A stretch of DNA of 64,000 nucleotides from Actinomycetes bacterium. Its GTDB lineage: Bacteria; Actinomycetota; Acidimicrobiia; Acidimicrobiales; Palsa-688. A program made the translations under genes and the position numbers. Every line of letters starts with the position of its first letter. Position 1 is the first letter of the stretch. Below the pieces are notes generated by a model. The model saw nothing but the letters and a program-made list of their open reading frames with translations, searched no databases and was not told the origin of the DNA. The DNA lies in assembly GCA_021809105.1 (NCBI GenBank), contig JAKBAM010000008.1, forward strand, positions 1 through 64,000, read 5' to 3'. Positions 14,620 to 42,213 of this stretch are shown piece by piece.

Positions 14620-16659
14620 ATGCTTCAGTACGTACTAGCCGGGCTGGCGCTGGGCTCGATCTATGCGATCGCGTCCGCGAGCCTGGTCGTCACCTTCGTC
14701 TCCGCCGGGGTGCTCAACTTCGCCTTCGGCTCGATGGCCTATTTCGTGGCCCGCTTTTACTATTTCCTCAACTCGCAGCACGGATGGCCTACCGACGCAG
14801 CCGGCGCAGTGTCGCTCCTGGTAGTGGCGCCACTGCTGGGAATAGTGCTGTACGGACTGCTCTTCCGCTTCATCCGCGGCAAGCCCACACTGGTGAAGTT
14901 GGTGAGCATGATCGGGTTGTCGGTCGCGCTCCCGCCGGTCGCCGACCTCACCTTCGGTACGCAGTCCATCACCTCCGCCCCTGGCCTGGCGTCGCTGTCG
15001 GATCAGCCTTTCCACTTCCTCGGCGCGCCGGTGACCACCAACCAGGTGATCACCTACGGCTTCCTGGTGGTCGTGGTGGTCCTCGGGACTGCGGTGTTGC
15101 GCCTGACCGACGTGGGCCTGCGTGTGAGGGCCATGGTGGACTCCGAGGCGATGGCGTCACTTTCAGGGACCAATCCCGGTCGGGTGGCACTCGGCGTCTG
15201 GGCCGCCAGCAGCACGCTGGCCGGGCTGGCCGGCATCCTTGTGGCTCCCACCAACGGCCTGACGACCACCGGCATGACGACCTTGATGGCCGCGGCCTTC
15301 GCCGCGGTCGTGGCTGCCCGCCTTCGGTCCCTTCCCGGAGCGGTCGGCGTCTCACTGCTCATGGGCGTGGTGACCGACGTGATCCAGAAGTACCTACCGC
15401 CGAATAGCTCCTTCACCGCTGCCATCATCCCGAGCATCCCGTTCGGCTTCATCTTGATCGCCCTGATCGTCTACCTGATCAGATCCGGCTCGCTCGACGA
15501 GGATGCCGGCGTCGCCGGCCCGCTGGACCAGGCGATCAAACCGGCCAACCAGGAATCCGGGGCGGTCTCCACCGACGCCGGTCGCCGCAAGGGTCCTGCG
15601 AAAGCCCTGCCCGCGATTCCCGTCATCGTGATCGCGCTGTTCCCGCTGATCTTCCACGGCTCCCCCTACTGGCTGGGCTTGGTCGCGCTCGGCTTCTGCT
15701 ACGCGATCACCTTCCTGACCTTCACCGTCGTCACGGGTGAAGGTGGGATGTTGTGGCTGTCACAGATCATCTTCGCCGGCGTCGGAGCGTTGGCCACCGC
15801 CCAGTTCGTCACGCTGTGGCACGTGCCGGTCCTAGCGGCGATCTTCCTCGGAGGGGTGGTCGCCGCCCTGGCCGGCGCGATCATCGGCCTGCTCACCATC
15901 CGGCTGGGTGATCTCTACGTCGCCTTGGTGACCCTGACCTTCGGTCTCCTGATCGAGACGTTGGTCTTCCCTCTCAACCGCTTCTTGAAGGGTGGCCTCG
16001 GCACGCCACTGCAGCGCCCGAGCTTCGCCACCAGCGACTTCGCCTTCTCGTTCCTGGCGTTGGGCGTGTTCGTCGTGTTCGCCCTCCTCACCTTGAACCT
16101 ACGCCGCTCGACGACAGGGCTGGCGCTGCGGGCCGTACGCGACAGCGAGGCGGCGTCACGCACGCTCGGTCTGAGCGTCCTGCAGGTGAAGGTGATCGTG
16201 GGCTCGCTCGCCGCCTTCGTGGCCGCCGTCGGTGGCGGGTTCCTTGCTCTGGATGCACTCGTCGCCCAGCCGCAGTCCTACGCCACCTTCGGGGGCCTGG
16301 TGTGGCTGGCCGTGGTCGTGACCATGGGAGTTCGCTCCATCACCGCGGCTGTCCTGGCGGGCATGGCATTCGCCCTCATGCCGGGCGTCTTCCAGACCTA
16401 CGTCCCGACCCGCTTCGGCGAGGTGCCGGCGATCCTCTTCGGGTTGGGCGCGGTCGGAGTCGCACGCAATCCCGAGGGAGTCGTGGCCCAAAACGCCCAA
16501 CAGCTCCGGGCGCTGGTCGCCAGGCTGCGCTCGGGGAAGGGTCCCGCGCCAGCCGCGATCGACGGCACCCAGGCCGTGCACCGGGAAGATCCGACTGACC
16601 GGGGAGAACAGCGAGCGGGTGTCGGATCCACCGAGACCGGCGTGGAGGCAGCGCCATGA
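14620..16659 (+). CDS. Fused branched-chain amino acid-type ABC transporter permease (LivH-LivM)
   Basis: This 679-residue membrane protein joins two permeases. The LivH-like half (about residues 1-290) begins MLQYVLAGLALGSIYAIAS and carries the inner-membrane helices of one half. A hydrophilic linker at about 290-330 follows, then a LivM-like half to about 640, with GEGGMLWLSQIIFAGVGA and RRSTTGLALRAVRDSEAA. The soluble tail is about 40 residues. ATG 14620 has AAGGGG upstream. These importers move branched amino acids or other small carboxylates. No substrate-binding protein gene lies nearby. The stop overlaps the ATPase gene (ATGA). Confidence 0.92.
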   Translation: MLQYVLAGLALGSIYAIASASLVVTFVSAGVLNFAFGSMAYFVARFYYFLNSQHGWPTDAAGAVSLLVVAPLLGIVLYGLLFRFIRGKPTLVKLVSMIGLSVALPPVADLTFGTQSITSAPGLASLSDQPFHFLGAPVTTNQVITYGFLVVVVVLGTAVLRLTDVGLRVRAMVDSEAMASLSGTNPGRVALGVWAASSTLAGLAGILVAPTNGLTTTGMTTLMAAAFAAVVAARLRSLPGAVGVSLLMGVVTDVIQKYLPPNSSFTAAIIPSIPFGFILIALIVYLIRSGSLDEDAGVAGPLDQAIKPANQESGAVSTDAGRRKGPAKALPAIPVIVIALFPLIFHGSPYWLGLVALGFCYAITFLTFTVVTGEGGMLWLSQIIFAGVGALATAQFVTLWHVPVLAAIFLGGVVAALAGAIIGLLTIRLGDLYVALVTLTFGLLIETLVFPLNRFLKGGLGTPLQRPSFATSDFAFSFLALGVFVVFALLTLNLRRSTTGLALRAVRDSEAASRTLGLSVLQVKVIVGSLAAFVAAVGGGFLALDALVAQPQSYATFGGLVWLAVVVTMGVRSITAAVLAGMAFALMPGVFQTYVPTRFGEVPAILFGLGAVGVARNPEGVVAQNAQQLRALVARLRSGKGPAPAAIDGTQAVHREDPTDRGEQRAGVGSTETGVEAAP

Positions 16660-18347
16660 CAGACCTATCCTCCAATGTGGCATCCGGCGGCGCCGCAGAC
16701 AGGGCTGGGGCGGCGGCAGGGTCGAACACGAGCCGCCTGGAGTGCTCGGGTGTGACCGTGCGTTTCGGCGGCCTCGTGGCGTTGGCCGACGTCGACCTGG
16801 TGGTGCCGCCGTCGGCGATAGTCGGCTTGGTGGGCCCCAACGGGGCCGGCAAGAGCACCCTCTTCGGCGTGCTGTCGGGCTTGCTCCGCCCTACCCGAGG
16901 CAAGGTTCTCCTGGAAGGCCAGGACATCACGGGGGAGCGACCGCAGCTGCGGGCGGCGTCGGGCTTGGCGCGGACGTTCCAGCATCCCGAGTTGTTCGCC
17001 GGCCTCACGGTGCGCGAGCACCTACGACTCGGCCACCGGGTGAGGAATGCCAAGAGCCGCATCTGGTCGGACCTTTTCACGATGGGGAGTGTGCGGGCGC
17101 CCGAGGCAACCGAGGACGAGCGCGTCGACGGGCTGGTCGCCCTGCTGGGGCTCGAATCCATAGCCGATCGCGCCGCGCTCGGCTTGCCGCTGGGTTCCGC
17201 TCGCCTTGTCGAGTTGGGGCGTGCGCTGTCCACGTCGCCGACGGTGCTGCTCCTCGACGAGCCCTCGTCGGGTTTGGACTCCGCGGAGACCGAGCAGTTC
17301 GAGGGCACTCTTCGCCGGGTCGCCGCCGAGCGTGGCATCTCCGTGCTGCTCGTCGAGCACGACGTCGAACTGGTGATGCGTCTCTGCAGCACCATCAACG
17401 TCCTGGACTTCGGGGCCTTGATCGCCTCCGGTTCCCCCGACGCGGTTCGCAGCGACCCGGCTGTGCGTGCCGCCTACCTCGGGGAAGAGGTGGCGGGCGC
17501 GGCCGAGCCGCGCGAGGACGGCGAGATCGTCATGGCCGCTTCCCCAGAAGCTGGGTCGGCGCCGGCAGCGGTCCCCGGCGGCGCGACACCGGCACAGGCC
17601 ATGCTCCCCGACGGTGAGGCGCCCGCAGCAGCTCTGGCCGTTCGGAGCCTGTCGGTCCGCTACGGGGACGCGGTGGCGCTCTCCGACGTGTCCTTCACCG
17701 TGGGCGCAGGCCGGGTCCTGGCGATCCTGGGAGCCAACGGCGCCGGCAAGAGCAGCCTGGCCCGGGCGGTCTCCGGGCTGGTGTGCCCTCACTCGGGCAG
17801 CGTCCTCTTCGACGGGCGGGAGATCTGTGCATGGCCGGCCCACCGGATCCGTCAAGCTGGGATGGTCCACCTCCCGGAGGGCCGGGGCGTGTTCCGGCAG
17901 CTGACGGTGGTGGACAACCTCCGGATGGCCGTCGCCAGCGTGGAGACCCGTCAGGGTCGGCGCGACGCGGTGGAGATGGCGCTCTCGACCTTCCCCGCCC
18001 TAGCAGACCGTCGGCGGCAGCTCGCTGGATCCCTGTCGGGTGGGGAGCAGCAAATGCTCTCGCTGGCCCGAGCCTTGGCGACCTCCCCCAAGCTGGTGAT
18101 CGCCGACGAGATGTCTCTCGGCCTGGCCCCCCGGATGGTCGACCTGGTCTTCGAAGGGCTGGGGCGGGCGCGGGAGATCGGCGTGTCGGTCGTCATGATC
18201 GAGCAGTACGTCCATCGTGCCTTGGCCTTCGCCGACGATTGCCTGGTGCTGCACCGGGGGCGGCTGGCATGGACCGGATCTGCGCACGACGTGGGCAGCG
18301 AGGTTTTGAGCCACTACTTGGGTGACGCGATGAGCCAGGCGTCCTGA
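16656..18347 (+). CDS. Fused ABC transporter ATPase (LivG-LivF)
   Basis: This 563-residue protein has two complete ABC ATPase domains in LivG-LivF order. The first has GPNGAGKST (Walker A, about residue 63) and VLLLDEPSSGLD; its signature is degenerate (LPLGSARLVE). The second begins near residue 325, with GANGAGKSS, LSGGEQQMLSLARAL and LVIADEMSLGLAP. It powers the fused permease encoded immediately upstream, so the whole importer needs only these two polypeptides plus a binding protein. The substrate is probably an organic acid used by the adjacent operon; that is inference. Confidence 0.93.
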   Translation: MTDLSSNVASGGAADRAGAAAGSNTSRLECSGVTVRFGGLVALADVDLVVPPSAIVGLVGPNGAGKSTLFGVLSGLLRPTRGKVLLEGQDITGERPQLRAASGLARTFQHPELFAGLTVREHLRLGHRVRNAKSRIWSDLFTMGSVRAPEATEDERVDGLVALLGLESIADRAALGLPLGSARLVELGRALSTSPTVLLLDEPSSGLDSAETEQFEGTLRRVAAERGISVLLVEHDVELVMRLCSTINVLDFGALIASGSPDAVRSDPAVRAAYLGEEVAGAAEPREDGEIVMAASPEAGSAPAAVPGGATPAQAMLPDGEAPAAALAVRSLSVRYGDAVALSDVSFTVGAGRVLAILGANGAGKSSLARAVSGLVCPHSGSVLFDGREICAWPAHRIRQAGMVHLPEGRGVFRQLTVVDNLRMAVASVETRQGRRDAVEMALSTFPALADRRRQLAGSLSGGEQQMLSLARALATSPKLVIADEMSLGLAPRMVDLVFEGLGRAREIGVSVVMIEQYVHRALAFADDCLVLHRGRLAWTGSAHDVGSEVLSHYLGDAMSQAS

Positions 18348-18350
18348 GCT

Positions 18351-19880
18351 TTAGTACCGCTCCCGCAGGAGGCGCTTGTAGAGCTTTCCGTTGGGGTCAC
18401 GCGGCAGCTCTTCTACGAAGTCGATGCTGCGGGGGCACTTGAAAGTGGCGATCTCCGACCGGCAGTAGGCGAGCAGCTCGCTTTCCAGATCGGCGCCGGC
18501 GCGGGCGGGGTCGACGGGCTGGACGACGGCCTTGACGGCTTCGCCCATCTCGTCGTCAGGTATCCCGAAGACCGCCACATCCGCGACTGCAGGGTGGCCG
18601 GCGAGGACGTTCTCCGTCTCCTGGGGGTAGATGTTGACACCCCCGGAGATGATCATGTTGGCTTGCCGGTCGGTGAGGTAGAGGTAGCCGTCCTCGTCCA
18701 GGTAGCCGATGTCGCCCAGCGTGCGCCACCCCTGCTCTTGGGTGACCGAGGCGGTCTTCGCCGGGTCGTTGTGGTATTCGAACGGCCGGCCGCCGGCGAA
18801 GTAGATCCGGCCGGGCTCTCCGGCACCGAGCTCCCCACCGTCCTCGCCGAGGATGTGGCACTCCTCGCGTGGCCGACCCACCGAGCCGGGATGGGCGAGC
18901 CACTCCTCGGCGGTGATGTGGGCGCTGCCGATGTCTTCGGTGCCGGAGTAGTACTCGTTGATGATCGGGCCCCACCATTCGATCATCTGGCGCTTGATCG
19001 GGACCGGGCAGGGCGCGGCGGCGTGGACCACGAACTGGAGGCTCGACAGGTCGAACTGCCGGCGTTGGTCCTCGGGGAGGCGCAGCATCCGGACGAACAT
19101 GGTGGGCACGAACTGGGCGTGGGTCACCCCGTAGCGCTCGATCGACTCCAGGCATTGACGGGCGTCGAAGCGTTCCATCACCACGACGGTCACGCCGTGG
19201 CGCTGCATCGCCATGGAGTAGACGAGGGGAGCGGCGTGGTACAAGGGGGCGGGCGAGAGGTACACCGATGTCGTGTTGGCGCCGAGCTCGCCGATTCCGA
19301 GCGCCACGCGAACCGGATTGGCCGTCGGATCCCCGAACGGTAGCCCTGACAGCGGCTTGCGGACGCCTTTCGGCCGCCCTGTCGTGCCGGAGGAGTACAA
19401 CATCTCCTGGCCCTCCTGCTCCTCCTCCTCAGGCAGAGGACCGTGGCGGGCGAGGAGGTCGTCGTAGCCGTCGAACCCGGCTAGGTGCCCAACGGCGGAT
19501 ATTCGATTGCGGACCCGGGACAGGTCGAGGTCGGTGACCACTGCGGCCATCTCCTCGGACGAGATCAACGTGCAGGCGCCGCAGTCGTCGAGTATGTACT
19601 GCACCTCGGCCCGTCGCAGGTGGCTGTTGATGGCGGTGTAGCACAACCCGGACCGTTGGGCCGCCCAGGTCACCTCCAGGTACCGGGAGTTGTTCTCCAT
19701 CAGGATGGCGATGTGATCGCCGGGAGCGGCGCCGCCCGAGCGCAGGGCTGCGGCCAGCCGGCGGGACCGGTCTTCGAGCTGGCCGTAAGTGACGGTCTCC
19801 CCGCTTCCCGCCATGATGACGGCAGGCGCGTCCGGTGTCCGCGACGCGTGCCAGCTGGGGGTCAGCTTCCCCGCTGTCAT
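18351..19880 (-). CDS. AMP-forming acyl-CoA synthetase (FadD family)
   Basis: This 509-residue member of the ANL superfamily activates a carboxylic acid as acyl-AMP and then acyl-CoA. Motifs are MLYSSGTTGRPKG (P-loop), EYYSGTED (A5-type), GWRTLGDIGYLDEDGYLYL and the C-terminal PRDPNGKLYKR with the adenylation lysine. ATG 19880 overlaps the stop of the preceding VOC gene (ATGA). It is the last gene of the TetR-alcohol dehydrogenase-VOC-ligase operon and converges with the transporter genes, leaving 3 bp between stops. Confidence 0.92.
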   Translation of the reverse strand: MTAGKLTPSWHASRTPDAPAVIMAGSGETVTYGQLEDRSRRLAAALRSGGAAPGDHIAILMENNSRYLEVTWAAQRSGLCYTAINSHLRRAEVQYILDDCGACTLISSEEMAAVVTDLDLSRVRNRISAVGHLAGFDGYDDLLARHGPLPEEEEQEGQEMLYSSGTTGRPKGVRKPLSGLPFGDPTANPVRVALGIGELGANTTSVYLSPAPLYHAAPLVYSMAMQRHGVTVVVMERFDARQCLESIERYGVTHAQFVPTMFVRMLRLPEDQRRQFDLSSLQFVVHAAAPCPVPIKRQMIEWWGPIINEYYSGTEDIGSAHITAEEWLAHPGSVGRPREECHILGEDGGELGAGEPGRIYFAGGRPFEYHNDPAKTASVTQEQGWRTLGDIGYLDEDGYLYLTDRQANMIISGGVNIYPQETENVLAGHPAVADVAVFGIPDDEMGEAVKAVVQPVDPARAGADLESELLAYCRSEIATFKCPRSIDFVEELPRDPNGKLYKRLLRERY

Positions 19881-20332
19881 GTCACGACCCCCGTCTCCCA
19901 GTACCGCTCCAGCATCGGCTGGAGATCCCTCGTCACGATCTCTATCCGCGGGGCGCCCGGGTGGCGGTGGTAGGCCCAGTACGGAGTCCCGTCGGGACGG
20001 GTCCCGGTAGCCTCCGCCGGATAGCCACGAGCTTCGAGGCGCGCCGCGTCGGCCGCGACGTCGTCGGACCAGTAGCCGAGATGGTGGATCGGCGAGCCGC
20101 TCGACGGAACCCACAGCGTGCCCGGCACGCTGCGGATGATCTCCAACCGCGGCGCCGTCATCGAGTAGGCGAAGCGCAGGTCGATCGAGCGCTCGCCGGT
20201 CGGGAGCCTGACGGGGGTCGGACCCCCGATCTCCTGGCACCAGCGGTAGCCGAAGAGGTCGGACAGCTCTGCCAGCGTCGATTCGAGGTCGTCGACGACG
20301 ATCCCGACGTGGAACTGGTCGTCAGCTCTCAT
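19877..20332 (-). CDS. VOC (glyoxalase/dioxygenase fold) family protein
   Basis: This 151-residue protein contains the paired beta-alpha-beta3 modules of the vicinal oxygen chelate superfamily. It starts QFHVGIVVDDLESTLAEL and has SPIHHLGYWSDDVAADAARL and a C-terminal APRIEIVTRDLQP strand. Possible metal ligands are the histidine in QFHVG, a histidine in PIHHLG and the Glu in RIEIV. Members include glyoxalases, epimerases and ring-cleavage dioxygenases, so the reaction is open. It overlaps both neighbours by ATGA. Confidence 0.82.
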   Translation of the reverse strand: MRADDQFHVGIVVDDLESTLAELSDLFGYRWCQEIGGPTPVRLPTGERSIDLRFAYSMTAPRLEIIRSVPGTLWVPSSGSPIHHLGYWSDDVAADAARLEARGYPAEATGTRPDGTPYWAYHRHPGAPRIEIVTRDLQPMLERYWETGVVT

Positions 20333-21267
20333 GCCGGCTCGATGACCACTCGGATGGCGCCGCTGGACTTGTCCCCCGCGATTCGGAAGGCTTCGACGGC
20401 GTCTTCGAGGGGGAACCGGTGGGTTATCACCGTGGCGGCGATCTCGGGATCTCCGGCGAGCATGGCTGCGGCTTCCTCCATCTCCCTCTTTCCGTCATGG
20501 GCGCAGTAGCCGAGCGAGGGGATGACCCGTGCCTCGCGATGGAACAGTGGCATCCAGTCCAGTTGCACCGGGCCGAAGTGCACCCCCAGCACGACAATCG
20601 TGCCCCCGGGAGCGACGAGCTCCGCGCAGCGGGCCAGGCTGGCCTCGGTCCCGGCCGCCTCCACCACCACGTCGTAAAGACCCTCCGGATCGTTGCTGGC
20701 GCCGAGCCGGTCGGCGGCGTCGCGCTGGTGACGGTGGCGGGCCACGATGGCTACCTCCTCACTGCCTTGAGCGAGAGCGCCCGGCACGGCCAGCAACCCG
20801 AGGGCGCCCGCGCCCACTACCGCCACCCGTTTGCCGGCTCCGGTGCCTGCGAGGCGCAGCGCATGCCACGACACGGAGGCAGGTTCGACGATCGAGGCGT
20901 CGGCGGGGGCAAGGCCCTCGGGCACCGGGACCATGCGTGCTGAAGGGGCCCGGAACTGCTCGGCCATCCCCCCGTCGGCGGTCATCCCCAGGGCACGCTC
21001 GCCGTGGGTGGCGCATAGGTTGTAGGTCCCCCGCCGGCATTGCTCGCATTCCATGCAACCGTAGAGCGCCTCCACGATCACTGGTGTGCCATCCTCGCGA
21101 ACCCCTGCGAGCTCGTGGCCGAGGACGGACCGGCTGCCGAAGCCGATGTAACTGAGGTCGGAGCCGCAAATGCTCATGGCCCGCATGCGCAGCACGTCGC
21201 CGGTGCCCGGCGGCTCGTCGACATCGACCACCGCTACTCCACCCTCCACGCTGCGCACGGCCTTCAC
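20329..21267 (-). CDS. Zinc-dependent medium-chain alcohol dehydrogenase
   Basis: This 312-residue MDR-family dehydrogenase carries catalytic zinc ligands at Cys34 (ICGSD) and His51-Glu52 (LGHE). Its structural zinc cysteines are at 71, 74, 77 and 85, and the nucleotide motif is VVGAGALGLLA. It would oxidise a secondary alcohol or reduce a ketone with NAD(P). It is somewhat shorter than the usual 340 residues because the N-terminal and inter-domain loops are short. GTG 21267 overlaps the stop of the TetR gene (GTGA). Confidence 0.9.
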   Translation of the reverse strand: MKAVRSVEGGVAVVDVDEPPGTGDVLRMRAMSICGSDLSYIGFGSRSVLGHELAGVREDGTPVIVEALYGCMECEQCRRGTYNLCATHGERALGMTADGGMAEQFRAPSARMVPVPEGLAPADASIVEPASVSWHALRLAGTGAGKRVAVVGAGALGLLAVPGALAQGSEEVAIVARHRHQRDAADRLGASNDPEGLYDVVVEAAGTEASLARCAELVAPGGTIVVLGVHFGPVQLDWMPLFHREARVIPSLGYCAHDGKREMEEAAAMLAGDPEIAATVITHRFPLEDAVEAFRIAGDKSSGAIRVVIEPA

Positions 21268-21965
21268 TTTGCGCCACCTCCCTCGGAACGCGCCGGGCCA
21301 TGTCTAGCCGGGGAACGTGCCGCCAGGATGGCACGGATGTAGAAGTCTGCAATGTGGTCGACCTCAGCCCGGCTCGGGCTGGTGCGCTGCCACAGGTGGT
21401 CCGAGAGCTTGCCCAGGGTGGAATGGGAGATCAACGAGGCGTCGAGCGGAGGCTCGGCGCTGCCGAGCGCCGCGAGTGGCGCGTGGAGGAGGGCGGCCAG
21501 GGGCTCATTGGCGAAGTGGCGACCCGATGCCTGCCCGTTGCCGACGGCGCCCCCGTTCCACAGCACCGCCAGGGTGGTGGCCGCAGTCTCGCCCTCCGCC
21601 TGTGAGAGCACTCCGGCCACCCAGCGTGCCACCTGCTCAGCCGGCCTGCTCTCCTTGGCCATCTGGTGGGCCAGGTAGCTACTGAGGCGCTCGGCGCCGT
21701 CTTGGATGATGGCGACCACCAGAGCGTCCTTCGACCGGAAGTGCCGGTAGAAGGTGTCGTTGGACAAGCCGGCCGCGGACACGATGTCGGTGACACGCGG
21801 GCTGGACCGGGTGCCGCACTGGCGCATAAGTCCGATAGCCGCGTCGATGAGGCGGCGAACCTCGCTGGCGTACTCGCTGCCCCGCTTGGCCAAGGTCTGC
21901 ATGGCAATGCGGTCCGCAACGTCGATCGGATCATGAGGAATTGCGTTCTGAGTAGGCAGAACCAT
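21264..21965 (-). CDS. TetR/AcrR family transcriptional regulator
   Basis: This protein is up to 233 residues, with a helix-turn-helix at about residues 55-85 (DIVSAAGLSNDTFYRHFRSKDAL). It is not closely similar to the TetR pair at 1340 and 6183. It heads a minus-strand operon with an alcohol dehydrogenase, a VOC protein and a ligase, and is divergent from the acyl-CoA dehydrogenase at 21994. ATG 21965 is the longest start. ATG 21902 would leave the palindrome at 21945-21962 in the 5' region and is quite possible. It probably regulates both divergent operons. Confidence 0.88.
   Translation of the reverse strand: MVLPTQNAIPHDPIDVADRIAMQTLAKRGSEYASEVRRLIDAAIGLMRQCGTRSSPRVTDIVSAAGLSNDTFYRHFRSKDALVVAIIQDGAERLSSYLAHQMAKESRPAEQVARWVAGVLSQAEGETAATTLAVLWNGGAVGNGQASGRHFANEPLAALLHAPLAALGSAEPPLDASLISHSTLGKLSDHLWQRTSPSRAEVDHIADFYIRAILAARSPARHGPARSEGGGAK
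21945..21962. promoter_or_regulatory. Palindrome GTTCTG-N6-CAGAAC, candidate TetR operator
   Basis: A perfect 6-bp inverted repeat with a 6-bp spacer lies between the divergent TetR (minus) and acyl-CoA dehydrogenase (plus) genes. It has the same geometry as the palindromes at 4093 and 14401 but different bases, as expected for a different TetR protein. It falls in the first codons of the TetR gene if translation starts at 21965, or upstream of it if ATG 21902 is used. Confidence 0.45.
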
Positions 21966-21993: not shown

Positions 21994-23295
21994 ATGTCAT
22001 GGGATTTCGAGACCGAGCCCGAGTACCAGAAGAAGCTGGACTGGGCCAGGGACTTCGTGCGCGAGGAGGTCGAGCCGCTCGACTACCTGTACCCGCACGG
22101 CCAGTTCGTGCCGATGGACGAGACCAAGCACAAGATCATCGACCCGCTCAAGGACCAGGTCCGGGCCCAGGGGCTCTGGGCCACGCACCTCGGCCCCGAG
22201 CTCGGCGGTGAGGGCTTCGGCCAGCTGAAGTTGGCCCTGCTCAACGAGATCCTGGGTCGATCGCCCTGGGCTTCCACCGTGTTCGGCACACAGGCGCCAG
22301 ACACCGGCAACGCCGAGATCATCGCCCACTACGGGACCCCCGAGCAGAAGGAGCGCTACCTGCAGCCCCTGCTCCACGGCGAGATGTTCTCCTCGTATTC
22401 GATGACCGAGCCTCAGGGGGGCGCCGACCCCACCCAGTTCACCACCCGGGCGGTCAAGGACGGCGACGAGTGGGTGCTCAACGGGTGGAAGTACTTCTCG
22501 TCGAACGCCAAGACGGCGTCGTTCCTGATCGTGATGGCCGTGACCAACCCGGACATCAGCCCCTACAAGGGGATGTCGATGTTCCTGGTGCCGACGGACA
22601 CGCCCGGTGTCAACATCGTGCGAAACGTGGGCCTCTACGGCGAGCCGATCGACGAGGGGTGGCACGCGCTCATCCACTACGAAGATGTCCGGGTGCCCGC
22701 CGAGGGGCTCCTCGGCGGTGAGGGACAGGCTTTCGTGATCGCCCAGACGCGCCTCGGTGGTGGACGGATCCACCACGCGATGCGCACCATAGGGATGGCC
22801 CAGAAGGCGATCGACATGATGTGCGAGCGGGCGCTCAGCCGGCACACCGCCGGCAGCCTCCTGGCCGACAAGCAGTTCGTGCAGGGTTACATCGCCGACT
22901 CCTATGCCCAATTGGCCCAGTTCCGGCTGTTCGTCCTGTACACGGCCTGGGAGATCGACAAGTACAACGACTACAAGCGGGTCCGCAAGGACATCGCCAC
23001 CGCCAAGGTCGTGATGCCCACCTTGCTCCACGACATCGCCTGGCGGGCCATGCAGGTGCATGGCGCCCTCGGGACGACCAACGAGATGCCCTTCTTCCAG
23101 ATGATCCACGGCGCCGGCGTCATGGGTCTGGCCGACGGCCCGACGGAGGTCCACAAGGCTACGGTGGCCCGCCAGATACTCCGCGACTACCGGGGGACCG
23201 ACGAGATGTGGCCCACCGAGTGGATCCCGGGGAAGATCGACGATGCCAAGGCCAAGTACGCCCAGTACCTGGAGCTCGAGGTGGGGAACCTGTGA
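21994..23295 (+). CDS. Acyl-CoA dehydrogenase, ACAD10/11-like clade
   Basis: This 433-residue acyl-CoA dehydrogenase starts at ATG 21994 after GGAGGGAG. Motifs include SMTEPQGGADP, WVLNGWKYFSSNA, and in place of the usual EGTxEIQ loop, LADGPTEVHKATVARQIL. The DGPxEVH form is typical of the ACAD10/11 clade, whose human members are fused to an APH kinase domain and process 4-hydroxyacyl-CoA. The next gene, overlapping by GTGA, is an APH-type kinase, so the two look like a split version of that fusion. A close paralogue is at 40838. Confidence 0.88.
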   Translation: MSWDFETEPEYQKKLDWARDFVREEVEPLDYLYPHGQFVPMDETKHKIIDPLKDQVRAQGLWATHLGPELGGEGFGQLKLALLNEILGRSPWASTVFGTQAPDTGNAEIIAHYGTPEQKERYLQPLLHGEMFSSYSMTEPQGGADPTQFTTRAVKDGDEWVLNGWKYFSSNAKTASFLIVMAVTNPDISPYKGMSMFLVPTDTPGVNIVRNVGLYGEPIDEGWHALIHYEDVRVPAEGLLGGEGQAFVIAQTRLGGGRIHHAMRTIGMAQKAIDMMCERALSRHTAGSLLADKQFVQGYIADSYAQLAQFRLFVLYTAWEIDKYNDYKRVRKDIATAKVVMPTLLHDIAWRAMQVHGALGTTNEMPFFQMIHGAGVMGLADGPTEVHKATVARQILRDYRGTDEMWPTEWIPGKIDDAKAKYAQYLELEVGNL

Positions 23296-24326
23296 TCGAC
23301 ATCGACCGCCTGGGCGGGTGGATGGACCAGCAGGGCTTCGAGGGCAGCGGTGAGCCGATCGAGGTCCGTTACCTCTCCGGCGGCTCGCAGAACGAGATCT
23401 ACGAGATCCGTCGCGGTGATCTTCACGGCGCCGTCCGGATACCGCCGCCGACCGCACCCGAGAGCCGCGACGCGGGGATCCTCCGCGAATGGCGGATCAT
23501 CGAGGCGCTGGACGGCACGGAGGTGCCCCACACCACAGCCATCGGCATGTGCGAGGACAAGTCCGTGCTCGGGCGCTCCTTCTACATGATGGGTTTCGTC
23601 GACGGCTGGTCGGTGATGAACACCGACCGTCGCTGGCCCGCTCCCTTCGACGACGACCTCGAACTGCGCAAGGGGCTCGCCTACCAGCTCGTCGAGGGGA
23701 TCGCCCTATTGGGCGGCGTCGACTGGAGAGCCAAGGGCCTGCAGGATCTGGGCCGGCCGGAGGGTTTCCACGACCGTCAGGTCGATCGATGGACCGCTTT
23801 TTTGGACCGGATAAAGAAGCGGGAGCTACCCGGCTTCGACGTGGCCGCCGCCTGGCTGCGTACCCACCGACCGATCGACTTCATCCCCGGACTGATGCAC
23901 GGCGACTACCAGTTCGCCAACGTGATGTTCAAGGACGGGGCGCCTGCTCGCCTGGCGGCACTGATCGATTGGGAGATGGGAACTGTCGGCGATCCCAAGC
24001 TGGACCTCGGGTGGGTGCTGCAGTCATGGCCGTCCGACACCAACGACCCCTCCCTGTCGGGAAGCGGCTACGCCGATCTCTACGGCATGCCGTCGAAGGA
24101 GCAGCTCGCCGCCCATTACGCAGAGGTCTCCGGGCGCCAGGTCGAAGACCTCGACTACTACGTCATCCTCGCCAAATGGAAGCTCGGGGTAGTGCTAGAG
24201 CAGGGCTACCAGCGGGCGGGCGACGATCCCAAGCTCCAGTCGTTCGGTCCGGTCATCGACGATCTGATGCGCGGAGCCGCCGAGCTCGCCGAGACCACCG
24301 ACTACAAGGTGAGCGCCACCGCCTGA
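23292..24326 (+). CDS. APH-family phosphotransferase (kinase partner of acyl-CoA dehydrogenase)
   Basis: This 344-residue protein has the protein-kinase-like APH fold. It has an N-terminal nucleotide lobe (YLSGGSQNEIYEI), the catalytic loop HGDYQFANV at residues 203-211 and the metal-binding IDWEMGTVGDPKLDLGW with Asp226. GTG 23292 overlaps the stop of the acyl-CoA dehydrogenase gene. It is not an antibiotic resistance gene by context. In ACAD10/11 and in bacterial levulinate catabolism, such kinases phosphorylate a 4-hydroxyacyl-CoA so that the paired dehydrogenase-fold enzyme can eliminate phosphate. That role here is inference from the pairing. Confidence 0.85.
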   Translation: MIDIDRLGGWMDQQGFEGSGEPIEVRYLSGGSQNEIYEIRRGDLHGAVRIPPPTAPESRDAGILREWRIIEALDGTEVPHTTAIGMCEDKSVLGRSFYMMGFVDGWSVMNTDRRWPAPFDDDLELRKGLAYQLVEGIALLGGVDWRAKGLQDLGRPEGFHDRQVDRWTAFLDRIKKRELPGFDVAAAWLRTHRPIDFIPGLMHGDYQFANVMFKDGAPARLAALIDWEMGTVGDPKLDLGWVLQSWPSDTNDPSLSGSGYADLYGMPSKEQLAAHYAEVSGRQVEDLDYYVILAKWKLGVVLEQGYQRAGDDPKLQSFGPVIDDLMRGAAELAETTDYKVSATA

Positions 24327-24350: not shown

Positions 24351-25097
24351 CTAGGCGGGGGGTCGGGGCACTACCGCGATGGTGGGGATGCTGGCGCTGG
24401 AGCCGCAGCGCAGGACCGTGTGGACGGCGTCGATCAGCTCCTCGACCTCCAGCAGGGAGCCGGCGATGTAGTTCCTGGCGATCCAGATGGGTGCGAACTC
24501 CCCGGCCAGCGCCGGGTCCCAGCCGGCATTGAACTCGGTCGCCGAGGCGCCCTTACCCCCTGCGCAGTCCCCCACGATGACACGGGTGAAGCCCACGTCG
24601 GGATGCTCGACACGCCAAGCCTCGACCAGCTTCTCCAGCGCCGCCTTGCTCACCACGTAGGCACCGAGGCCGGGCCAGGCGGGGGTCATCGACGCACTGA
24701 TCGAGGACAGGTAGGCCGCCACGCCGGAGGATGCCCTCAGATGCGGCAGCGCGGCGGCGGTGACGAGGGCCGCCCCGGTCACGTTCGATGCGAACACGTT
24801 GCTCCACGTGGCGGCGTCGATGTCTTCCAAGCGGGCCAACGGGCCGATACCGACGGCGTACACCAAAGCGTCTATGCCGCCCATGTGGCCAGCGGCCGCG
24901 GCTATCGACTCTTCGCAGGAGTCGCCGTCAGTGACGTCGCAGCGGATGGCCACCGCGCCCGGTCCGGCCTCCTCGACCCCTTCGTCGAGGCGCTCGAGCC
25001 GGCGGCCCAGGAGGGCGACCTGCTCGCCTCTCTGCCCCATGGCCACGCCGATGCAGCGCCCCAGCCCACTCGAAGCCCCCACCACGACAACTCTCAT
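24351..25097 (-). CDS. SDR family oxidoreductase
   Basis: This 248-residue SDR has GASSGLG at the N-terminus for NAD(P), a YAVGIG segment in place of NNAG, a catalytic serine in SSISAS, and YVVSKAALEKL (Tyr-x3-Lys). It converges on the kinase gene and diverges from the ligase at 25278, with 180 bp between starts. It appears to be transcribed alone. The substrate is unknown. Confidence 0.87.
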   Translation of the reverse strand: MRVVVVGASSGLGRCIGVAMGQRGEQVALLGRRLERLDEGVEEAGPGAVAIRCDVTDGDSCEESIAAAAGHMGGIDALVYAVGIGPLARLEDIDAATWSNVFASNVTGAALVTAAALPHLRASSGVAAYLSSISASMTPAWPGLGAYVVSKAALEKLVEAWRVEHPDVGFTRVIVGDCAGGKGASATEFNAGWDPALAGEFAPIWIARNYIAGSLLEVEELIDAVHTVLRCGSSASIPTIAVVPRPPA

Positions 25098-25221: not shown

Positions 25222-25278
25222 ATGGCGACGCAACAGCCCGATCCCCCGCTGTTCGACACCGCCGGCGTCCCGGCTTGA
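25222..25278 (+). CDS. Short upstream ORF (18 aa) coupled to acyl-CoA ligase
   Basis: ATG 25222 has GAGGAG 7 bp upstream and opens an 18-codon frame (MATQQPDPPLFDTAGVPA) whose TGA stop shares a base with the ATG of the ligase at 25278 (TTGATG context). The ligase itself has no good ribosome binding site of its own. The most likely role is translational coupling. The peptide resembles nothing I recognise. The alternative is a chance ORF, with the strong site acting for a longer, wrongly framed start. Confidence 0.5.
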   Translation: MATQQPDPPLFDTAGVPA

Positions 25279-26879
25279 TGGCGGAGATCGGCCCCCGCTG
25301 GTCGACGATCCCGGCCATGGCCGCCGCCACGGCCGAGCGCCACGGCGAGCGCCTGGCGGTCGCCGACGGTGCGACCAGGCTCTCCTACGCGGAGTTGTTC
25401 TCCGCCTCCCGCTCGTTCGGGGCCGCTCTGGTGGAGGCGGGTGTCCAGCCCGGCGAACGGGTGGCCATCTGGGCGTTCAACAGCGCCGAGTGGATCATCG
25501 CCCTCCTGGGAGTGGAGCAGGTCGGGGCCGTGCTGGTCCCGATCAACACCAGGTTCAAAGGACCGGAGGCGGCTGCGGTACTGGCCCGGAGCCGGGCCCG
25601 GGCGCTGGTGACCGTCACCGACTTCCTGGGCGTCGACTACGTAGCCATGTTGCGCTCGGCGGGGGTCGAGCTGCCGGACCTGCAGACGATCGTCGTGGCT
25701 GACGGGCCGGTCCCGGACGGGGCGGAGTCGTGGGCGGGCTTCATGAGCCGCGCCACCCCGGCCGGTTGGGCGGAGGTCGACCGGCGCCGGGCGTCGCTCA
25801 GCACCGACGACCCCTCGGATGTGCTGTTCACGTCCGGCACCACTGGGGTCTCCAAGGGTGTGGTCATGACCCACGGCCGGACGCTGTGTGTCGCCACCGA
25901 CTGGGTCGAGATGACCGGCCTCGGAGCCGGCGACCGCTACTTGATGGTCAACCCCTACTTTCACATGTTCGGCCTGAAGGGTGGGATCTTGGCCTGCGTG
26001 GCCAGCGGTGCTGCCATGCTGCCCGAGCCGGTGTTCGACGTAGGGCGGGTCCTCGCCCGGGTCGAGGAGGAGAAGGTGACGGTCCTGCCCGGGCCGCCCA
26101 CCATCTACCAGTCGATCCTCGACCATCCCGACCTCGACCGCTACGACCTGTCGAGCCTGCGGGTGGCGGTCACTGGCGCAGCCGACATCCCCGTGGAGCT
26201 GATCCGTCGGATCCACGACGAGCTCCCGTTCTCCAGGATCATCTCCGGCTACGGCTTGACCGAGGGCGGCACGGCTACGGGCACGTCGCCCGAGGACGAC
26301 TTCGAGGCCATAGCCACGACGGTCGGCCACCGCCGCCCGGGGTTCGAGATCCGCATCGTGGACGACAAGGGCCAGGACGTACCCGCCGGCGAGTCCGGCG
26401 AGGTGCTGCTCCGGGGCGGGAGCATCATGCTGCAGTACCTCGACGATCCGGTCGAGACGGCCAAGGCACTCTCGCCCGAAGGATGGCTGCGCACCGGTGA
26501 CCTCGGAGCGTTCGACGCCGGCGGGCGGCTGCGCATCGTCGGGCGGGTCAAGGACATGTTCATCGTGGGAGGCTTCAACGCCTATCCAGCCGAGATCGAA
26601 AACGCTCTGCTCGGGCACCCCGACATCCGCCAAGCCGCTGTCATCGGGATCCCCGACGAGCGCCTCGGCGAGGTGGGCATGGCGTTCGTTGTGCTGAGGC
26701 CGGGCGCCAGGACCAGCGGTGCGGACATCGCGGCGTGGTCCCGGGAGCAGATGGCCAACTACAAGGCGCCGAGGGTGGTGGAGATCGTCGACCACCTTCC
26801 CCTCAACGCCACCGGCAAGGTGCAAAAGGACGTCCTCCGCGCCGGGCTGTCTCCCCGACCGACGGTGTCGCCGGCATGA
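25278..26879 (+). CDS. AMP-forming acyl-CoA synthetase (FadD3-like)
   Basis: This 533-residue ANL-superfamily ligase has VLFTSGTTGVSKGVVMTH (P-loop), ISGYGLTEGG (A5), WLRTGDLGAFDAGG and PLNATGKVQKDVL with the C-terminal lysine. The N-terminal half, with RVAIWAFNSAEWIIALLG and VPINTRFKGPEA, resembles FadD3, the ligase for steroid-ring-derived propanoates, but family resemblance alone does not fix the substrate. ATG 25278 overlaps the stop of an 18-codon ORF. The stop overlaps the start of the CoA transferase (ATGA). Confidence 0.9.
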   Translation: MAEIGPRWSTIPAMAAATAERHGERLAVADGATRLSYAELFSASRSFGAALVEAGVQPGERVAIWAFNSAEWIIALLGVEQVGAVLVPINTRFKGPEAAAVLARSRARALVTVTDFLGVDYVAMLRSAGVELPDLQTIVVADGPVPDGAESWAGFMSRATPAGWAEVDRRRASLSTDDPSDVLFTSGTTGVSKGVVMTHGRTLCVATDWVEMTGLGAGDRYLMVNPYFHMFGLKGGILACVASGAAMLPEPVFDVGRVLARVEEEKVTVLPGPPTIYQSILDHPDLDRYDLSSLRVAVTGAADIPVELIRRIHDELPFSRIISGYGLTEGGTATGTSPEDDFEAIATTVGHRRPGFEIRIVDDKGQDVPAGESGEVLLRGGSIMLQYLDDPVETAKALSPEGWLRTGDLGAFDAGGRLRIVGRVKDMFIVGGFNAYPAEIENALLGHPDIRQAAVIGIPDERLGEVGMAFVVLRPGARTSGADIAAWSREQMANYKAPRVVEIVDHLPLNATGKVQKDVLRAGLSPRPTVSPA

Positions 26880-28082: not shown

Positions 28083-28127
28083 GCTACGGATCAGGCGTTA
28101 CGGATCAGTGGCTACGGAATCAGTGGC
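28083..28127 (+). repeat. Short imperfect direct repeats at gene ends
   Basis: About three imperfect copies of a 14-15 bp unit related to GCTACGGATCAGTG lie between the CoA transferase stop and the end of the opposing acyl-CoA dehydrogenase gene. The last copy covers the dehydrogenase stop codon at 28120. They look like recent slippage products. I see no hairpin that would make them a terminator. Confidence 0.5.
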
Positions 28128-39003: not shown

Positions 39004-39789
39004 TCACGGGAGCTGGCCACGGCTCTCGAGGAACGGTTGGGTGTAGGCGATCTGGCCGGTCAAGGTCGCCGGGTCTCCGCTGCAGAGGATGAGGACCGTC
39101 TCGGTGATCAGACCGACGTCCTCGGTGTCGGTCTTCGCCAGGTCGAGCGCCCCTGCGCCGGGCGTGGGTACCGGCTTCCAAGGGGCCGCGGCGTTGACCG
39201 CGATGCCGCTCGAGTACAGCTCGGCGGCCAGGCTCACGGTGAGGCGGTCCAGCGCGGCCTTGACGGTGCCGTACATGCCGAACCCGGCGGAGGCATCGAA
39301 GTCGGAGAACGGAGGACCAGGGGGACGGTCGCCGGCGATCGAGGTCAGGTTGAGGATCCAGCCCCGCCCCCGCTCGCGCATGCGGGGCAGCACCAGCTGT
39401 GTGAGGTGGAGCGGCGCCAGCACGTGCATCTCCATCATGAGCCGTGCCCGTCGCTCCGGGAACTCGTCCAGCGGGCGGAGGAAGGTCACCGCCGCGTTGT
39501 TCACCAGGATGTCGGGCGCCCCGACCTGGCGCTCGACCTCGGCTACCACCCGCTCACGGTCTTCGGCCTTGGAGATGTCGGCCTGCACCGCTACCGAACG
39601 GCCGCCGGCGGCGTTGATCTCGTCGCAGGTCTCGCGCAGTGAGCCCTGCTGTCCCGGATCGGGATCCATCGTGCGGGCCGTGATGGCCACCGTGGCGCCC
39701 TCGGATGCCAGCTTCTCGGCGATGGCCTTGCCGAGACCCCGGCTGGCGCCCGTGACGAGCGCTACCTTTCCCTCACAGCGGTTGCCCAA
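39004..39789 (-). CDS. SDR family oxidoreductase
   Basis: This 261-residue classical SDR has VTGASRGLG, VNNAAVTF, a catalytic serine in NLTSIAG and YGTVKAALDRL (Tyr-x3-Lys). The start is a TTG at 39789 after GAGGGGAAGA. It precedes the acyl-CoA dehydrogenase pair in the same direction, with 7 bp between its stop and the preferred start. It probably acts on the hydroxyacyl or ketoacyl stage of the same pathway. Confidence 0.88.
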   Translation of the reverse strand: MGNRCEGKVALVTGASRGLGKAIAEKLASEGATVAITARTMDPDPGQQGSLRETCDEINAAGGRSVAVQADISKAEDRERVVAEVERQVGAPDILVNNAAVTFLRPLDEFPERRARLMMEMHVLAPLHLTQLVLPRMRERGRGWILNLTSIAGDRPPGPPFSDFDASAGFGMYGTVKAALDRLTVSLAAELYSSGIAVNAAAPWKPVPTPGAGALDLAKTDTEDVGLITETVLILCSGDPATLTGQIAYTQPFLESRGQLP

Positions 39790-39865
39790 GGCTCTTCCCC
39801 TCGTAGTGCGGCGCCGCCAGACTAGCCGGCCCTCCCTCAGCGCTCAGACGGGGATTGATGACACC

Positions 39866-40837
39866 ATGACCGCCATCCAGCTCGACGTCCACCAGCTCCA
39901 GGAGCGGCTGGCGTCCATCGATGTCCGCGACGTGCGACCGCTGTCGGGCGGTGCCTCGAGCCTCACGTATGTCGGTTCGATGGGCGATGAACGAGTGGTC
40001 GTCAAAGTGGCGCCCCCTGGCGTAGCCCCCCTGCGGAACCGGGACGTGCTGCGCCAGGCTCGACTGATGCGGGCTCTCCAGCAGACTCCGGTGCCCGTTC
40101 CCCGCGTCGTCTGGGAGGACGCCGGCGATCCGCCCGACACGCCGCCCCTGTTCGTGATGACCTTCGCCGAGGGATCCTCGTCGGAGCCGCTGTTCGACCG
40201 GGACTGCGACGACGACGCCACCAAAGTGGCCGAGGCGGCCCGCAACGCCGCCCGGACCCTCGCCCAGGTGCACGCCATCGAACCCGCCGACTTGGGCTTG
40301 TCCGCCGAGCCGGTAGTCGGCCCCGTGGCCGAGGTCGACCGGTGGAGCCGGCTGCTCCAGACCGTCGACGCCGCCTTGGTGCCCGGATGGGAGGATGTCG
40401 CTGCGCAGCTGCGCAGCCGCGAGCCGGCGGGCGTCCGAATCGGCCTGGTGCACGGCGACTTCCGCCTCGGCAACCTGCTCAGGAGCGGCAGCCGCATCAC
40501 CGCGGTCGTCGACTGGGAGATCTGGTCCCTCGGGGATCCACGGGTCGATCTGGGCTGGTTCCTAGCCAACTGCGATCCGGCCACCTACCGGCGCGACACC
40601 CCCCAGGCGTCGTGGTTGCCGTCGCTCGACGAGCTCACCGAGACCTACAGCCGTACCCTCGGGAGAGAGGTGCCGGACCTGCGATGGTTCCGGGCGCTCG
40701 CGTGCTTCAAATCGAGCGCCACCTGGTCGCTGATCGTGAAGCACGATCGGCGCCGCGCCGAGCCCGACCCCGCCGTCGAGGAGGTGGGGAGGCAGCTGCC
40801 GGGCCTGCTCGATCAGGCCCGGCAGCTCCTCGGCTGA
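39866..40837 (+). CDS. APH-family phosphotransferase (second kinase partner of acyl-CoA dehydrogenase)
   Basis: This 323-residue APH-fold kinase has RPLSGGASSLTYVG in the nucleotide lobe, VVVKV with the ATP lysine, HGDFRLGNLL at residues 196-205 and VVDWEIWSLGDPRVDLGW with Asp216. It is divergent from the SDR at 39004 and converges on the acyl-CoA dehydrogenase at 40838. The two stop codons share the palindrome TGATCA. That dehydrogenase is a paralogue of the one paired with the kinase at 23292, so the kinase/dehydrogenase association occurs twice. Confidence 0.85.
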   Translation: MTAIQLDVHQLQERLASIDVRDVRPLSGGASSLTYVGSMGDERVVVKVAPPGVAPLRNRDVLRQARLMRALQQTPVPVPRVVWEDAGDPPDTPPLFVMTFAEGSSSEPLFDRDCDDDATKVAEAARNAARTLAQVHAIEPADLGLSAEPVVGPVAEVDRWSRLLQTVDAALVPGWEDVAAQLRSREPAGVRIGLVHGDFRLGNLLRSGSRITAVVDWEIWSLGDPRVDLGWFLANCDPATYRRDTPQASWLPSLDELTETYSRTLGREVPDLRWFRALACFKSSATWSLIVKHDRRRAEPDPAVEEVGRQLPGLLDQARQLLG

Positions 40838-42136
40838 TCAGCGGACCGGCACGATCCCCTCGAGCCGCTCGGCGTACTTGGCCTGCGCCGCCTCCCGCCG
40901 CCGGACTAGGTGCTCGGAAGGGAAGAGGTCGGGTGCGGGGGTGTAACCCTTGAGGATCTGGCGTGCGAGGGTGACCTTGTGGACCTCCGTCGGCCCGTCC
41001 GCCAACCCGAGGACGAACGACTCCACCAGGTAGCGCACGAGCGGCATCTCGTTGGTCGTCCCGAGCGACCCGTGCAGCTGGAGCGCCCGCGCCGACACGT
41101 CGTGGAGGACCTTCTGCATCATGGCCTTGACCGCCGAGATGTCGGCCCGCACGGCCCGGTAGTCCCCAAGCTGGTCGATCTTCCACGCCGTCTGCATCGT
41201 GAGCAGCCGGAAGGACTCGATCTCCATCCAGGAGTCGGCGATCATCTCCTGCACCATCTGCTTGTTGCCGAGCATCTCGCCCTGGGTGTGGCGCGACACG
41301 GCGCGCTCGCAGATCATGTCGAAGATGCGCCGCACCAGGCCGACGGTGCGCATGGCGTGGTGGATCCTCCCGCCCCCGAGCCGGGTCTGGGCGACGGCGA
41401 AAGCACCCCCGCGAGGGCCGAGCATGTGATCTGCCGGAACCCTGACACCTTCGTAGCGGACATAGGCCTCGTAGCCGTCACCGACCGGCTCGTAGCCCAT
41501 GCCGACGTCCCGCAGCACATTGATGCCGGGGGTCTCCACCGGGACGACGAACATGGAGTGCCGCTGGTAGGGAGCGGCGTCGGGATCGGTGACGGCCATC
41601 ACGATCAAGAAGGCGGCGAGGGACGCGAACGACGTGAACCACTTCTCGCCGTGGATGACCCATTCGTCCCCGTCGAGCGTGGCGCTGGTGGTGAACACCT
41701 TGGGGTCGGCCCCCCCTTGTGGCTCGGTCATCGAGAACGCCGACACGATGCGGTTGTCCAGCAGCGGTTCGAGGTAGCGAGCCTTCAGCTCGGACGTGCC
41801 GTAATGGGCCAGGATCTCGCTGTTGCCCGAGTCGGGCGCCTGGGAGCCGAAGACGATCGGCGCGCACACCGAGCGGCCGAGGATCTCGTTGAGGAGGGCC
41901 AGCTTGACCTGCCCGTACCCCGGCCCTCCGAGATGCGATCCCAGATGGGTGGCCCAAAGGCCGCGCTCTTTGACCAGCTTCTGCAACGGCGGTATCAGCG
42001 CTTGGCGGACCGGGTCCTTCAGGTCATGCGATTCCACCACCACGTAGTCGAGCGGCTCGCACTCCTCCCGCACGAACTCGTCGGCCCATTTGAGAGCTGC
42101 TGCGTACTCAGGGTCAGTCGAGAAATCCCAGGCCAT
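40838..42136 (-). CDS. Acyl-CoA dehydrogenase, ACAD10/11-like clade (paralogue of 21994)
   Basis: This 432-residue protein aligns throughout with the product of 21994: MAWDFSTDPEY at the start, FSMTEPQGGADP, LGGGRIHHAMRT, LQLHGSLGTTNEMP and LADGPTEVHKVTLARQIL. The last is the DGPxEVH form of the ACAD10/11 clade. ATG 42136 has AGGAG 5 bp upstream; GTG 42142 is an alternative. The kinase gene at 39866 converges on it. I infer a role in processing hydroxyacyl-CoA through a phosphorylated intermediate. Confidence 0.88.
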   Translation of the reverse strand: MAWDFSTDPEYAAALKWADEFVREECEPLDYVVVESHDLKDPVRQALIPPLQKLVKERGLWATHLGSHLGGPGYGQVKLALLNEILGRSVCAPIVFGSQAPDSGNSEILAHYGTSELKARYLEPLLDNRIVSAFSMTEPQGGADPKVFTTSATLDGDEWVIHGEKWFTSFASLAAFLIVMAVTDPDAAPYQRHSMFVVPVETPGINVLRDVGMGYEPVGDGYEAYVRYEGVRVPADHMLGPRGGAFAVAQTRLGGGRIHHAMRTVGLVRRIFDMICERAVSRHTQGEMLGNKQMVQEMIADSWMEIESFRLLTMQTAWKIDQLGDYRAVRADISAVKAMMQKVLHDVSARALQLHGSLGTTNEMPLVRYLVESFVLGLADGPTEVHKVTLARQILKGYTPAPDLFPSEHLVRRREAAQAKYAERLEGIVPVR

Positions 42137-42213
42137 CACCACTCCTGTCCCGCGATCGGCGGGTTCTGTCGCTCGCCCGGCGACCGCTCCCGCTGTATGT
42201 AGTGTCTACGATG

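What the first reader, a model, noticed from the sequence alone, without database searches (positions are those of the whole stretch)
21994..24326. Split ACAD10/11-like module: acyl-CoA dehydrogenase coupled to an APH kinase
The dehydrogenase has the DGPTEVH loop of the ACAD10/11 clade and its stop overlaps the start of an APH-fold kinase gene. In animals the two are fused and convert 4-hydroxyacyl-CoA by phosphorylation and elimination. This would be a bacterial two-gene version, probably for hydroxylated acids released by ring or chain breakdown.
Basis: partly seen in the sequence, partly recalled or inferred. Interest (0 to 1): 0.72.

Follow-up and report, generated by a model that had tools for sequence, protein, structure and literature searches.

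The report
Bacterial two-gene ACAD10/11-type dehydroxylation pair
Two overlapping genes in an actinobacterium encode a kinase and a modified acyl-CoA dehydrogenase that very probably remove a hydroxyl group from a CoA-bound acid by phosphorylating it and expelling the phosphate, a bacterial relative of the human ACAD10/ACAD11 enzymes of a kind already known from levulinate degradation but with an untested substrate.

Summary
An acyl-CoA dehydrogenase (ACAD, 21994-23295, +, 433 aa) and an APH-fold kinase (23292-24326, +, GTG start, 344 aa) overlap by 4 bp (GTGA). The pairing is not chance: 78 of 80 actinobacterial orthologues (77-88% identical) have the kinase directly downstream. All active-site residues that mutagenesis and modelling assign to phosphate elimination in ACAD11 (R626, H634, R637, D753) are present (R253, H261, R264, D381) and invariant in 80/80 orthologues. 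None of 19 ordinary ACADs of the same genome has the set. The kinase residues are conserved in 77/77. The reading is partly supported. The tree places the ACAD in a well-supported sister subfamily, not inside the ACAD10/11/LvaC clade. DGPTEVH marks that sister subfamily; ACAD10/11 themselves have DGPDEVH. A bacterial two-gene version is not new: LvaA/LvaC of Pseudomonas putida and Burkholderia orthologues have been assayed. The substrate cannot be read from sequence; 4-hydroxyacyl-CoA is the best guess. Conserved neighbours (TetR, VOC protein, FadD4-like ligase, Zn-alcohol dehydrogenase) suggest an accessory catabolic module. A second ACAD/kinase pair with a different kinase type lies at 39089-42142.

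The parts
21994..23295 (+). ACAD10/11-superclade acyl-CoA dehydrogenase, 433 aa
   Evidence: Pfam ACAD N/M/C; best solved matches 4hr3 (255 bits) and ACAD11 8v3u/2wbi/8v3v (242-244 bits) against 158 bits for the best ordinary ACAD. Model closest to 4hr3, 2wbi, 8v3u (Z 39.9, 39.6, 38.6; next 35.9).
22750..22785 (+). Phosphate-site helix RLGGGRIHHAMR: R253, R258, H261, R264 (mouse ACAD11 R626, R631, H634, R637)
   Evidence: roles and mutants from PMC12440821. Invariant in 80/80 orthologues.
23134..23154 (+). DGPTEVH loop with catalytic base D381 (mouse ACAD11 D753)
   Evidence: Ordinary ACADs of the genome have Glu or other residues here.
23292..23295 (+). 4-bp overlap GTGA: start of the kinase, stop of the ACAD
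   Evidence: 72 of 78 orthologous pairs have a possible start codon at the same overlap.
23292..24326 (+). APH-fold kinase, 344 aa
   Evidence: APH 92 bits; 9o56, 3dxp and the ACAD11 kinase domain are the best solved matches by sequence. Model pLDDT 81; 3dxp Z 24.7, 25-hydroxysteroid kinase 9ft5 Z 20.1.
23898..23921 (+). Kinase catalytic loop HGDYQFAN: D205 and N210 (mouse ACAD11 D220, N225); further R162 = R176
   Evidence: conserved in 77/77 kinases next to orthologues.
21264..21965 (-). Divergent TetR-type regulator
   Evidence: Pfam TetR_N; a homologue lies at 28 of 80 orthologous loci.
20329..21267 (-). Zn-dependent alcohol dehydrogenase
   Evidence: 4 of 80 loci.
19877..20332 (-). VOC/Glyoxalase_4 family protein
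   Evidence: 19 of 80 loci.
18351..19880 (-). FadD4-like acyl-CoA ligase, candidate for substrate activation
   Evidence: FadD4 model 671 bits, below its cut-off of 850; 7 of 80 loci at 57-73% identity.
24351..25097 (-). SDR oxidoreductase, convergent and just downstream
   Evidence: orthologues at L007 (65%) and L010 (61%, same arrangement). SDR genes also accompany kinase/ACAD pairs on plasmids of Streptomyces and Massilia.
39089..40837 (+). Second APH-type kinase (domain about 39880-40830; true start probably near 39809)
   Evidence: different kinase type, K/Q/A where the first has R/E/R.
40838..42142 (-). Second ACAD of the same sister subfamily (57% identical to the first), convergent with the second kinase
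   Evidence: keeps R, R, H, R, D and DGPTEVH.

Best explanation
The pair is a two-enzyme dehydroxylation module. The kinase uses ATP to phosphorylate a hydroxyl group, most likely at C4, of a CoA-bound acid. The flavoprotein takes the alpha proton with D381, moves a hydride from C3 to FAD, expels phosphate with help from R253, H261 and R264, and gives the hydride back, leaving a 2-enoyl-CoA for ordinary beta-oxidation without net electron transfer. Shown here: both genes, their overlap, their conserved linkage and the conservation of every residue named. Inferred from ACAD11 and LvaA/LvaC: both reaction steps. Guessed: the C4 position, the identity of the acid, and that the FadD4-like ligase makes the CoA ester.
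For: Homology of both halves to ACAD11. R626/H634/R637/D753 equivalents invariant in 80/80 orthologues, absent as a set from 19 ordinary ACADs of the genome; [quoted passage not shown] Kinase D220/N225/R176 and Arg-Glu equivalents in 77/77. Kinase directly downstream in 78/80. ACAD and kinase distances correlate over 28 pairs (r 0.70, permutation p 0.0002), and the kinase tree separates the ACAD11-type from the window type as the ACAD tree does. Bacterial LvaA/LvaC-type proteins were assayed and can replace the ACAD10 domains (PMC11342911).
Against: The ACAD lies outside the assayed clade (about 37-43% identity to its members). The ACAD11-type Pro463 is Ser94 here (though Pro in 72 of 80 orthologues, and Ala or Gly in some ACAD11-clade proteins). 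Pro629 is Gly and the loop has T for D. No member of the sister subfamily is known to me to have been assayed. Half of the wider family has no adjacent kinase. No lvaB-like gene lies between the two. The mirror-tree correlation is partly shared species descent.
Confidence: 0.7

Rival explanations
1. Same phosphorylate-and-eliminate logic, but on a hydroxyl at another position or on a cyclic or branched acyl-CoA (for example a steroid or terpenoid fragment) rather than a linear 4-hydroxy acid.
For: Sister subfamily with its own fixed differences (G for P at 629, T for D at 756). The neighbourhood is a large CoA-thioester catabolic island with a ligase above the FadD3-family cut-off at 25275-26879. 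The kinase model also matches 25-hydroxysteroid kinase (Z 20.1), which phosphorylates a steroid alcohol ahead of elimination (PMC8449060).
Against: The residues contacting the 4-phospho group in ACAD11 models are unchanged. By sequence and structure the kinase is nearer to 3dxp, 9o56 and ACAD11 than to 25-HSK. That the window is steroid-related is not shown; the FadD3 model is broad.
Confidence: 0.2
2. The ACAD is an ordinary alpha,beta-dehydrogenase that works with ETF, and the kinase acts on an unrelated small molecule; they are merely co-transcribed.
For: Half of the wider family lacks an adjacent kinase, and two different kinase types occur next to these ACADs. The window is rich in ACADs.
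Against: Catalytic Asp and the Arg/His/Arg phosphate site instead of the usual apolar pocket, invariant in 80/80. Close and conserved linkage. Both halves are closest to ACAD11-type proteins.
Confidence: 0.08
3. The kinase is an aminoglycoside- or macrolide-modifying resistance enzyme.
For: APH fold; antibiotic kinases appear lower in the fold list.
Against: Only a 27-bit match to one antibiotic kinase model with a cut-off of 390; ACAD11-type residues; fixed linkage to an ACAD in 78/80 loci.
Confidence: 0.02

Closest known systems
ACAD10/ACAD11 (animals), kinase-ACAD fusions for 4-hydroxy acids (PMC12440821, PMC11342911)
   Same: Both domains homologous; same kinase catalytic and CoA-contact residues; same R/H/R phosphate site and catalytic Asp.
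   Different: Two separate genes; ACAD gene first; sister subfamily with about 38% identity; DGPTEVH for DGPDEVH, GGGR for GPGR, Ser94 for Pro463; substrate untested.
LvaA/LvaC of the Pseudomonas putida lva operon (levulinate catabolism)
   Same: Separate kinase and ACAD genes in a catabolic cluster, with a ligase and an SDR nearby.
   Different: LvaC is 56-62% identical to ACAD11/10 (PMC11342911) and so belongs to the clade that excludes this protein (inference from identity); no LvaB-like gene in the pair; TetR rather than a sigma54-type regulator; LvaA/LvaC sequences themselves could not be fetched for direct comparison.
25-Hydroxysteroid kinase of Sterolibacterium denitrificans (PMC8449060; 9fsg, 9ft5)
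   Same: APH-fold kinase that activates an alcohol for later elimination; kinase model matches at Z 20.1.
   Different: Only 17-18% identity in the structural alignment; acts on free steroids; its lyase is unknown and not an adjacent gene.
4hr3, ACAD of Mycobacterium abscessus, and 3dxp, APH of Ralstonia eutropha (structural genomics)
   Same: Best solved relatives of the ACAD and the kinase.
   Different: Both fall with the ACAD11-type clades in the trees.

Membership tests
ACAD10/11-type kinase plus ACAD system (broad sense) | ACAD with catalytic Asp and the Arg/His/Arg phosphate site | tested here: met
   R253, H261, R264, D381; 80/80 orthologues; no ordinary ACAD of the genome has the set.
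ACAD10/11-type kinase plus ACAD system (broad sense) | APH-type kinase partner with the ACAD11 catalytic and CoA-contact residues | tested here: met
   R65-E66, R162, H203-G-D205, N210, D226. The paper calls the Arg beside the helix-C Glu R86; my count on the PDB sequence gives 84.
ACAD10/11-type kinase plus ACAD system (broad sense) | ATP-dependent phosphorylation of a 4-hydroxyacyl-CoA followed by phosphate elimination without electron acceptor | not testable with these tools
   Needs enzyme assays.
ACAD10/11/LvaC clade (narrow sense) | Phylogenetic position within the clade of ACAD11, 4hr3 and proteobacterial/Deinococcus relatives | tested here: not met
   clade of 8 rows (100/99) without the window protein, which is in the sister clade of 23 rows (100/100). 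The join of the two is 94/89; the whole superclade is 100/100.
ACAD10/11/LvaC clade (narrow sense) | Conserved Pro463 that breaks a helix and widens the site (PMC11342911) | tested here: not met
   Ser94 here; Pro in 72 of 80 orthologues; also Ala or Gly in four ACAD11-clade plasmid proteins, so a weak criterion.
lva operon (levulinate catabolism) | lvaABCDE gene set: kinase, LvaB, ACAD, SDR, acyl-CoA ligase | tested here: inconclusive
   Kinase, ACAD, SDR and ligases are near, but on different strands, and no small gene lies between kinase and ACAD. LvaB was not searched for by sequence; a Pseudomonas citronellolis lva cluster also lacks it (PMC6692424).
Antibiotic-resistance APH | Match to a resistance-kinase model above its cut-off | tested here: not met
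   capreomycin kinase model 27 bits, cut-off 390.

The most novel reading that the evidence does not exclude
The sister subfamily, widespread in Mycobacterium, Nocardia, Frankia and Acidimicrobiia and paired with at least two different kinase types, is a separate branch of kinase-coupled dehydroxylases for substrates other than linear 4-hydroxy fatty acids, such as hydroxylated branched, terpenoid or steroid-derived acyl-CoAs.
Probability: 0.3. Interest if true: 0.55.

Novelty: new member of a known kind. Interest (0 to 1): 0.36.

Why it matters
If true, a pair that databases label only 'acyl-CoA dehydrogenase' and 'phosphotransferase' in many actinobacteria, mycobacteria among them, would have a defined job: making hydroxylated acids fit for beta-oxidation. 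It would extend the ACAD10/11 chemistry to a sister branch, offer separate soluble partners for studying the unusual redox-neutral FAD step, and correct annotations that read as ordinary fatty-acid oxidation or antibiotic resistance.

Tried and rejected
Direct comparison with LvaA/LvaC: the Pseudomonas sequences could not be fetched, and the Rand 2017 paper is not held; ACAD11-clade plasmid proteins were used instead. Pro463 as a diagnostic was dropped, because ACAD11-clade members lack it too. Antibiotic resistance was rejected. The ACAD model is poor beyond residue 357 (pLDDT about 40), so the D381 geometry was not read from it. The kinase tree includes one misframed row (L117) that should be ignored. 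8v3u/8v3v did not appear in the kinase fold list; this says nothing about the fold. Literature searches for an assayed actinobacterial member of this subfamily found none.

Full report
WHAT IS THERE. The ACAD gene runs from 21994 to 23295 (+, ATG, 433 aa) and the kinase gene from 23292 to 24326 (+, GTG, 344 aa); they share the four bases GTGA. Both are complete and score far above Pfam cut-offs (ACAD N/M/C and APH). The window is part of contig C39 of a 3.65 Mb draft genome. The nearest named orthologues come from Acidimicrobiia metagenome assemblies, and Acidimicrobiia is my inference for the organism.

THE ACAD. The closest solved proteins are 4hr3 (M. abscessus) and human/mouse ACAD11 (242-255 bits); the next ACAD scores 158 bits. 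The predicted fold ranks the same three first (Z 39.9, 39.6, 38.6; next 35.9). The published ACAD11 work assigns the phosphate of 4-phosphoacyl-CoA to R626, H634 and R637 and catalysis to D753, and reports that Ala or Leu replacements of the three were most disruptive to the ACAD step (PMC12440821). The window protein has all of them: R253, H261, R264, D381. They are identical in 80 of 80 orthologues; none of 19 ordinary ACADs of the same genome carries the set.

WHERE IT SITS. A maximum-likelihood tree gives an ACAD10/11 superclade (32 rows, 100/100) with two main branches: ACAD11, 4hr3 and proteobacterial/Deinococcus relatives (8 rows, 100/99), and the window's branch (23 rows, 100/100). Their union has 94/89. 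So the protein is a sister of the assayed clade, not a member. The same genome holds an ACAD11-clade ACAD (C16:268057, 56% identical to mouse ACAD11) with no kinase within 5 kb, and two more sister-branch ACADs (window 40859-42136 and C2:19424).

THE KINASE. Best solved relatives by sequence are 9o56, 3dxp and the ACAD11 kinase domain. The kinase residues that ACAD11 modelling links to the 4-OH group and to CoA (D220, N225, R176, the Arg beside the helix-C Glu) are D205, N210, R162 and R65; these are the same in 77 of 77 kinases beside orthologues. The paper numbers the last one R86, whereas I count 84 on the PDB sequence, so that assignment is mine. The fold model (pLDDT 81) matches 3dxp (Z 24.7), then 25-hydroxysteroid kinase (Z 20.1) and Rv3168 (Z 18.8).

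LINKAGE. Of 80 orthologous loci in Acidimicrobiia, Mycobacteriaceae, Nocardiaceae, Frankiaceae, Pseudonocardiaceae and Thermomonosporaceae, 78 have the kinase directly downstream on the same strand; in 72 a start codon allows the same 4-bp overlap. One of the other two (L041) has a kinase of another subgroup just upstream, and one (L064) has none. More distant members pair less strictly: 11 of 22 loci in the phylum sample have a kinase within about 1.2 kb, and plasmid copies in Streptomyces, Rhodococcus, Massilia, Caulobacter and Novosphingobium show kinase and ACAD adjacent or separated by an SDR, in varying order and strand; a Rhodococcus copy (L006) has no kinase. In the window's genome 3 of 5 superclade ACADs have an APH gene within 3 kb against 2 of 21 others (Fisher p 0.034). 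Distances of ACADs and kinases correlate over 28 pairs (r 0.70, p 0.0002), partly from shared descent. The orthologue is patchy: 6 of 100 genomes sampled in the class. This suggests an accessory catabolic module.

NEIGHBOURS. A TetR regulator diverges from the ACAD; behind it lie a Zn-alcohol dehydrogenase, a VOC protein and a FadD4-like ligase. Homologues recur at other orthologous loci (TetR 28, VOC 19, ligase 7, alcohol dehydrogenase 4 of 80), so they probably belong to the same pathway. An SDR lies convergently just downstream. The next genes (ligase at 25275, CoA-transferase, ordinary ACAD at 28120) showed no homologue above threshold at the orthologous loci.

HOW IT MOST LIKELY WORKS. 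By analogy with ACAD10/11 and LvaA/LvaC: acid to acyl-CoA, phosphorylation of the (probably C4) hydroxyl, then FAD-dependent, net redox-neutral loss of phosphate to a 2-enoyl-CoA. The sequence evidence supports both halves of this chemistry; the position of the hydroxyl and the identity of the acid are not determined.

NOVELTY. The two-gene bacterial form is already known: lvaA/lvaC were identified in P. putida, and Burkholderia orthologues were shown to replace the ACAD10 domains (PMC11342911). I found no paper on an assayed member of this sister subfamily in the held library. I file it as a new member of a known kind, with the open question whether the sister branch has other substrates.

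Noticed in passing
window 39089-42142: A second kinase/ACAD pair, convergent; the ACAD is 57% identical to the first and keeps the phosphate-site residues, but the kinase is of another type with K, Q and A where ACAD11-type kinases have R, E and R. The same kinase type sits beside related ACADs at four other loci (L130, L131, L139, L140).
   Followed up: partly
G000 C16:268057-269166 (L090, L150): The genome also holds an ACAD11-clade ACAD (56% to mouse ACAD11) with no kinase within 5 kb; which kinase serves it is unknown.
   Followed up: partly
G000 C16:65441-66457 (L149): A kinase 60% identical to the window kinase with all ACAD11-type residues but no ACAD within about 4.5 kb.
   Followed up: partly
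L041 (Mycobacterium nebraskense) and L064 (Mycobacterium sp. IS-1590): Orthologous ACADs whose downstream kinase is missing; L041 has a different-subgroup kinase just upstream, a possible partner swap.
   Followed up: partly
window 14620-18347: Branched-chain-amino-acid-type ABC transporter genes appear fused: one ORF with two permease stretches (14620-16659) and one with two ATPase domains (16656-18347), overlapping by 4 bp.
   Followed up: no
window 25275-26879: Acyl-CoA ligase above the curated cut-off of the FadD3 family model (687 against 657 bits), a family named after the steroid-ring ligase; the substrate here is untested.
   Followed up: no
L021: A 3 kb contig filed as a Bifidobacterium breve metagenome assembly carries this actinobacterial pair at 82% identity; probably mis-binned.
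   Followed up: no
L125 (Deinococcus deserti plasmid) and 9o56: Kinases of one subgroup in which the HGD motif reads HND or HYD; in L125 a histidine phosphatase gene follows, as in the Pseudomonas citronellolis levulinate cluster (PMC6692424).
   Followed up: no
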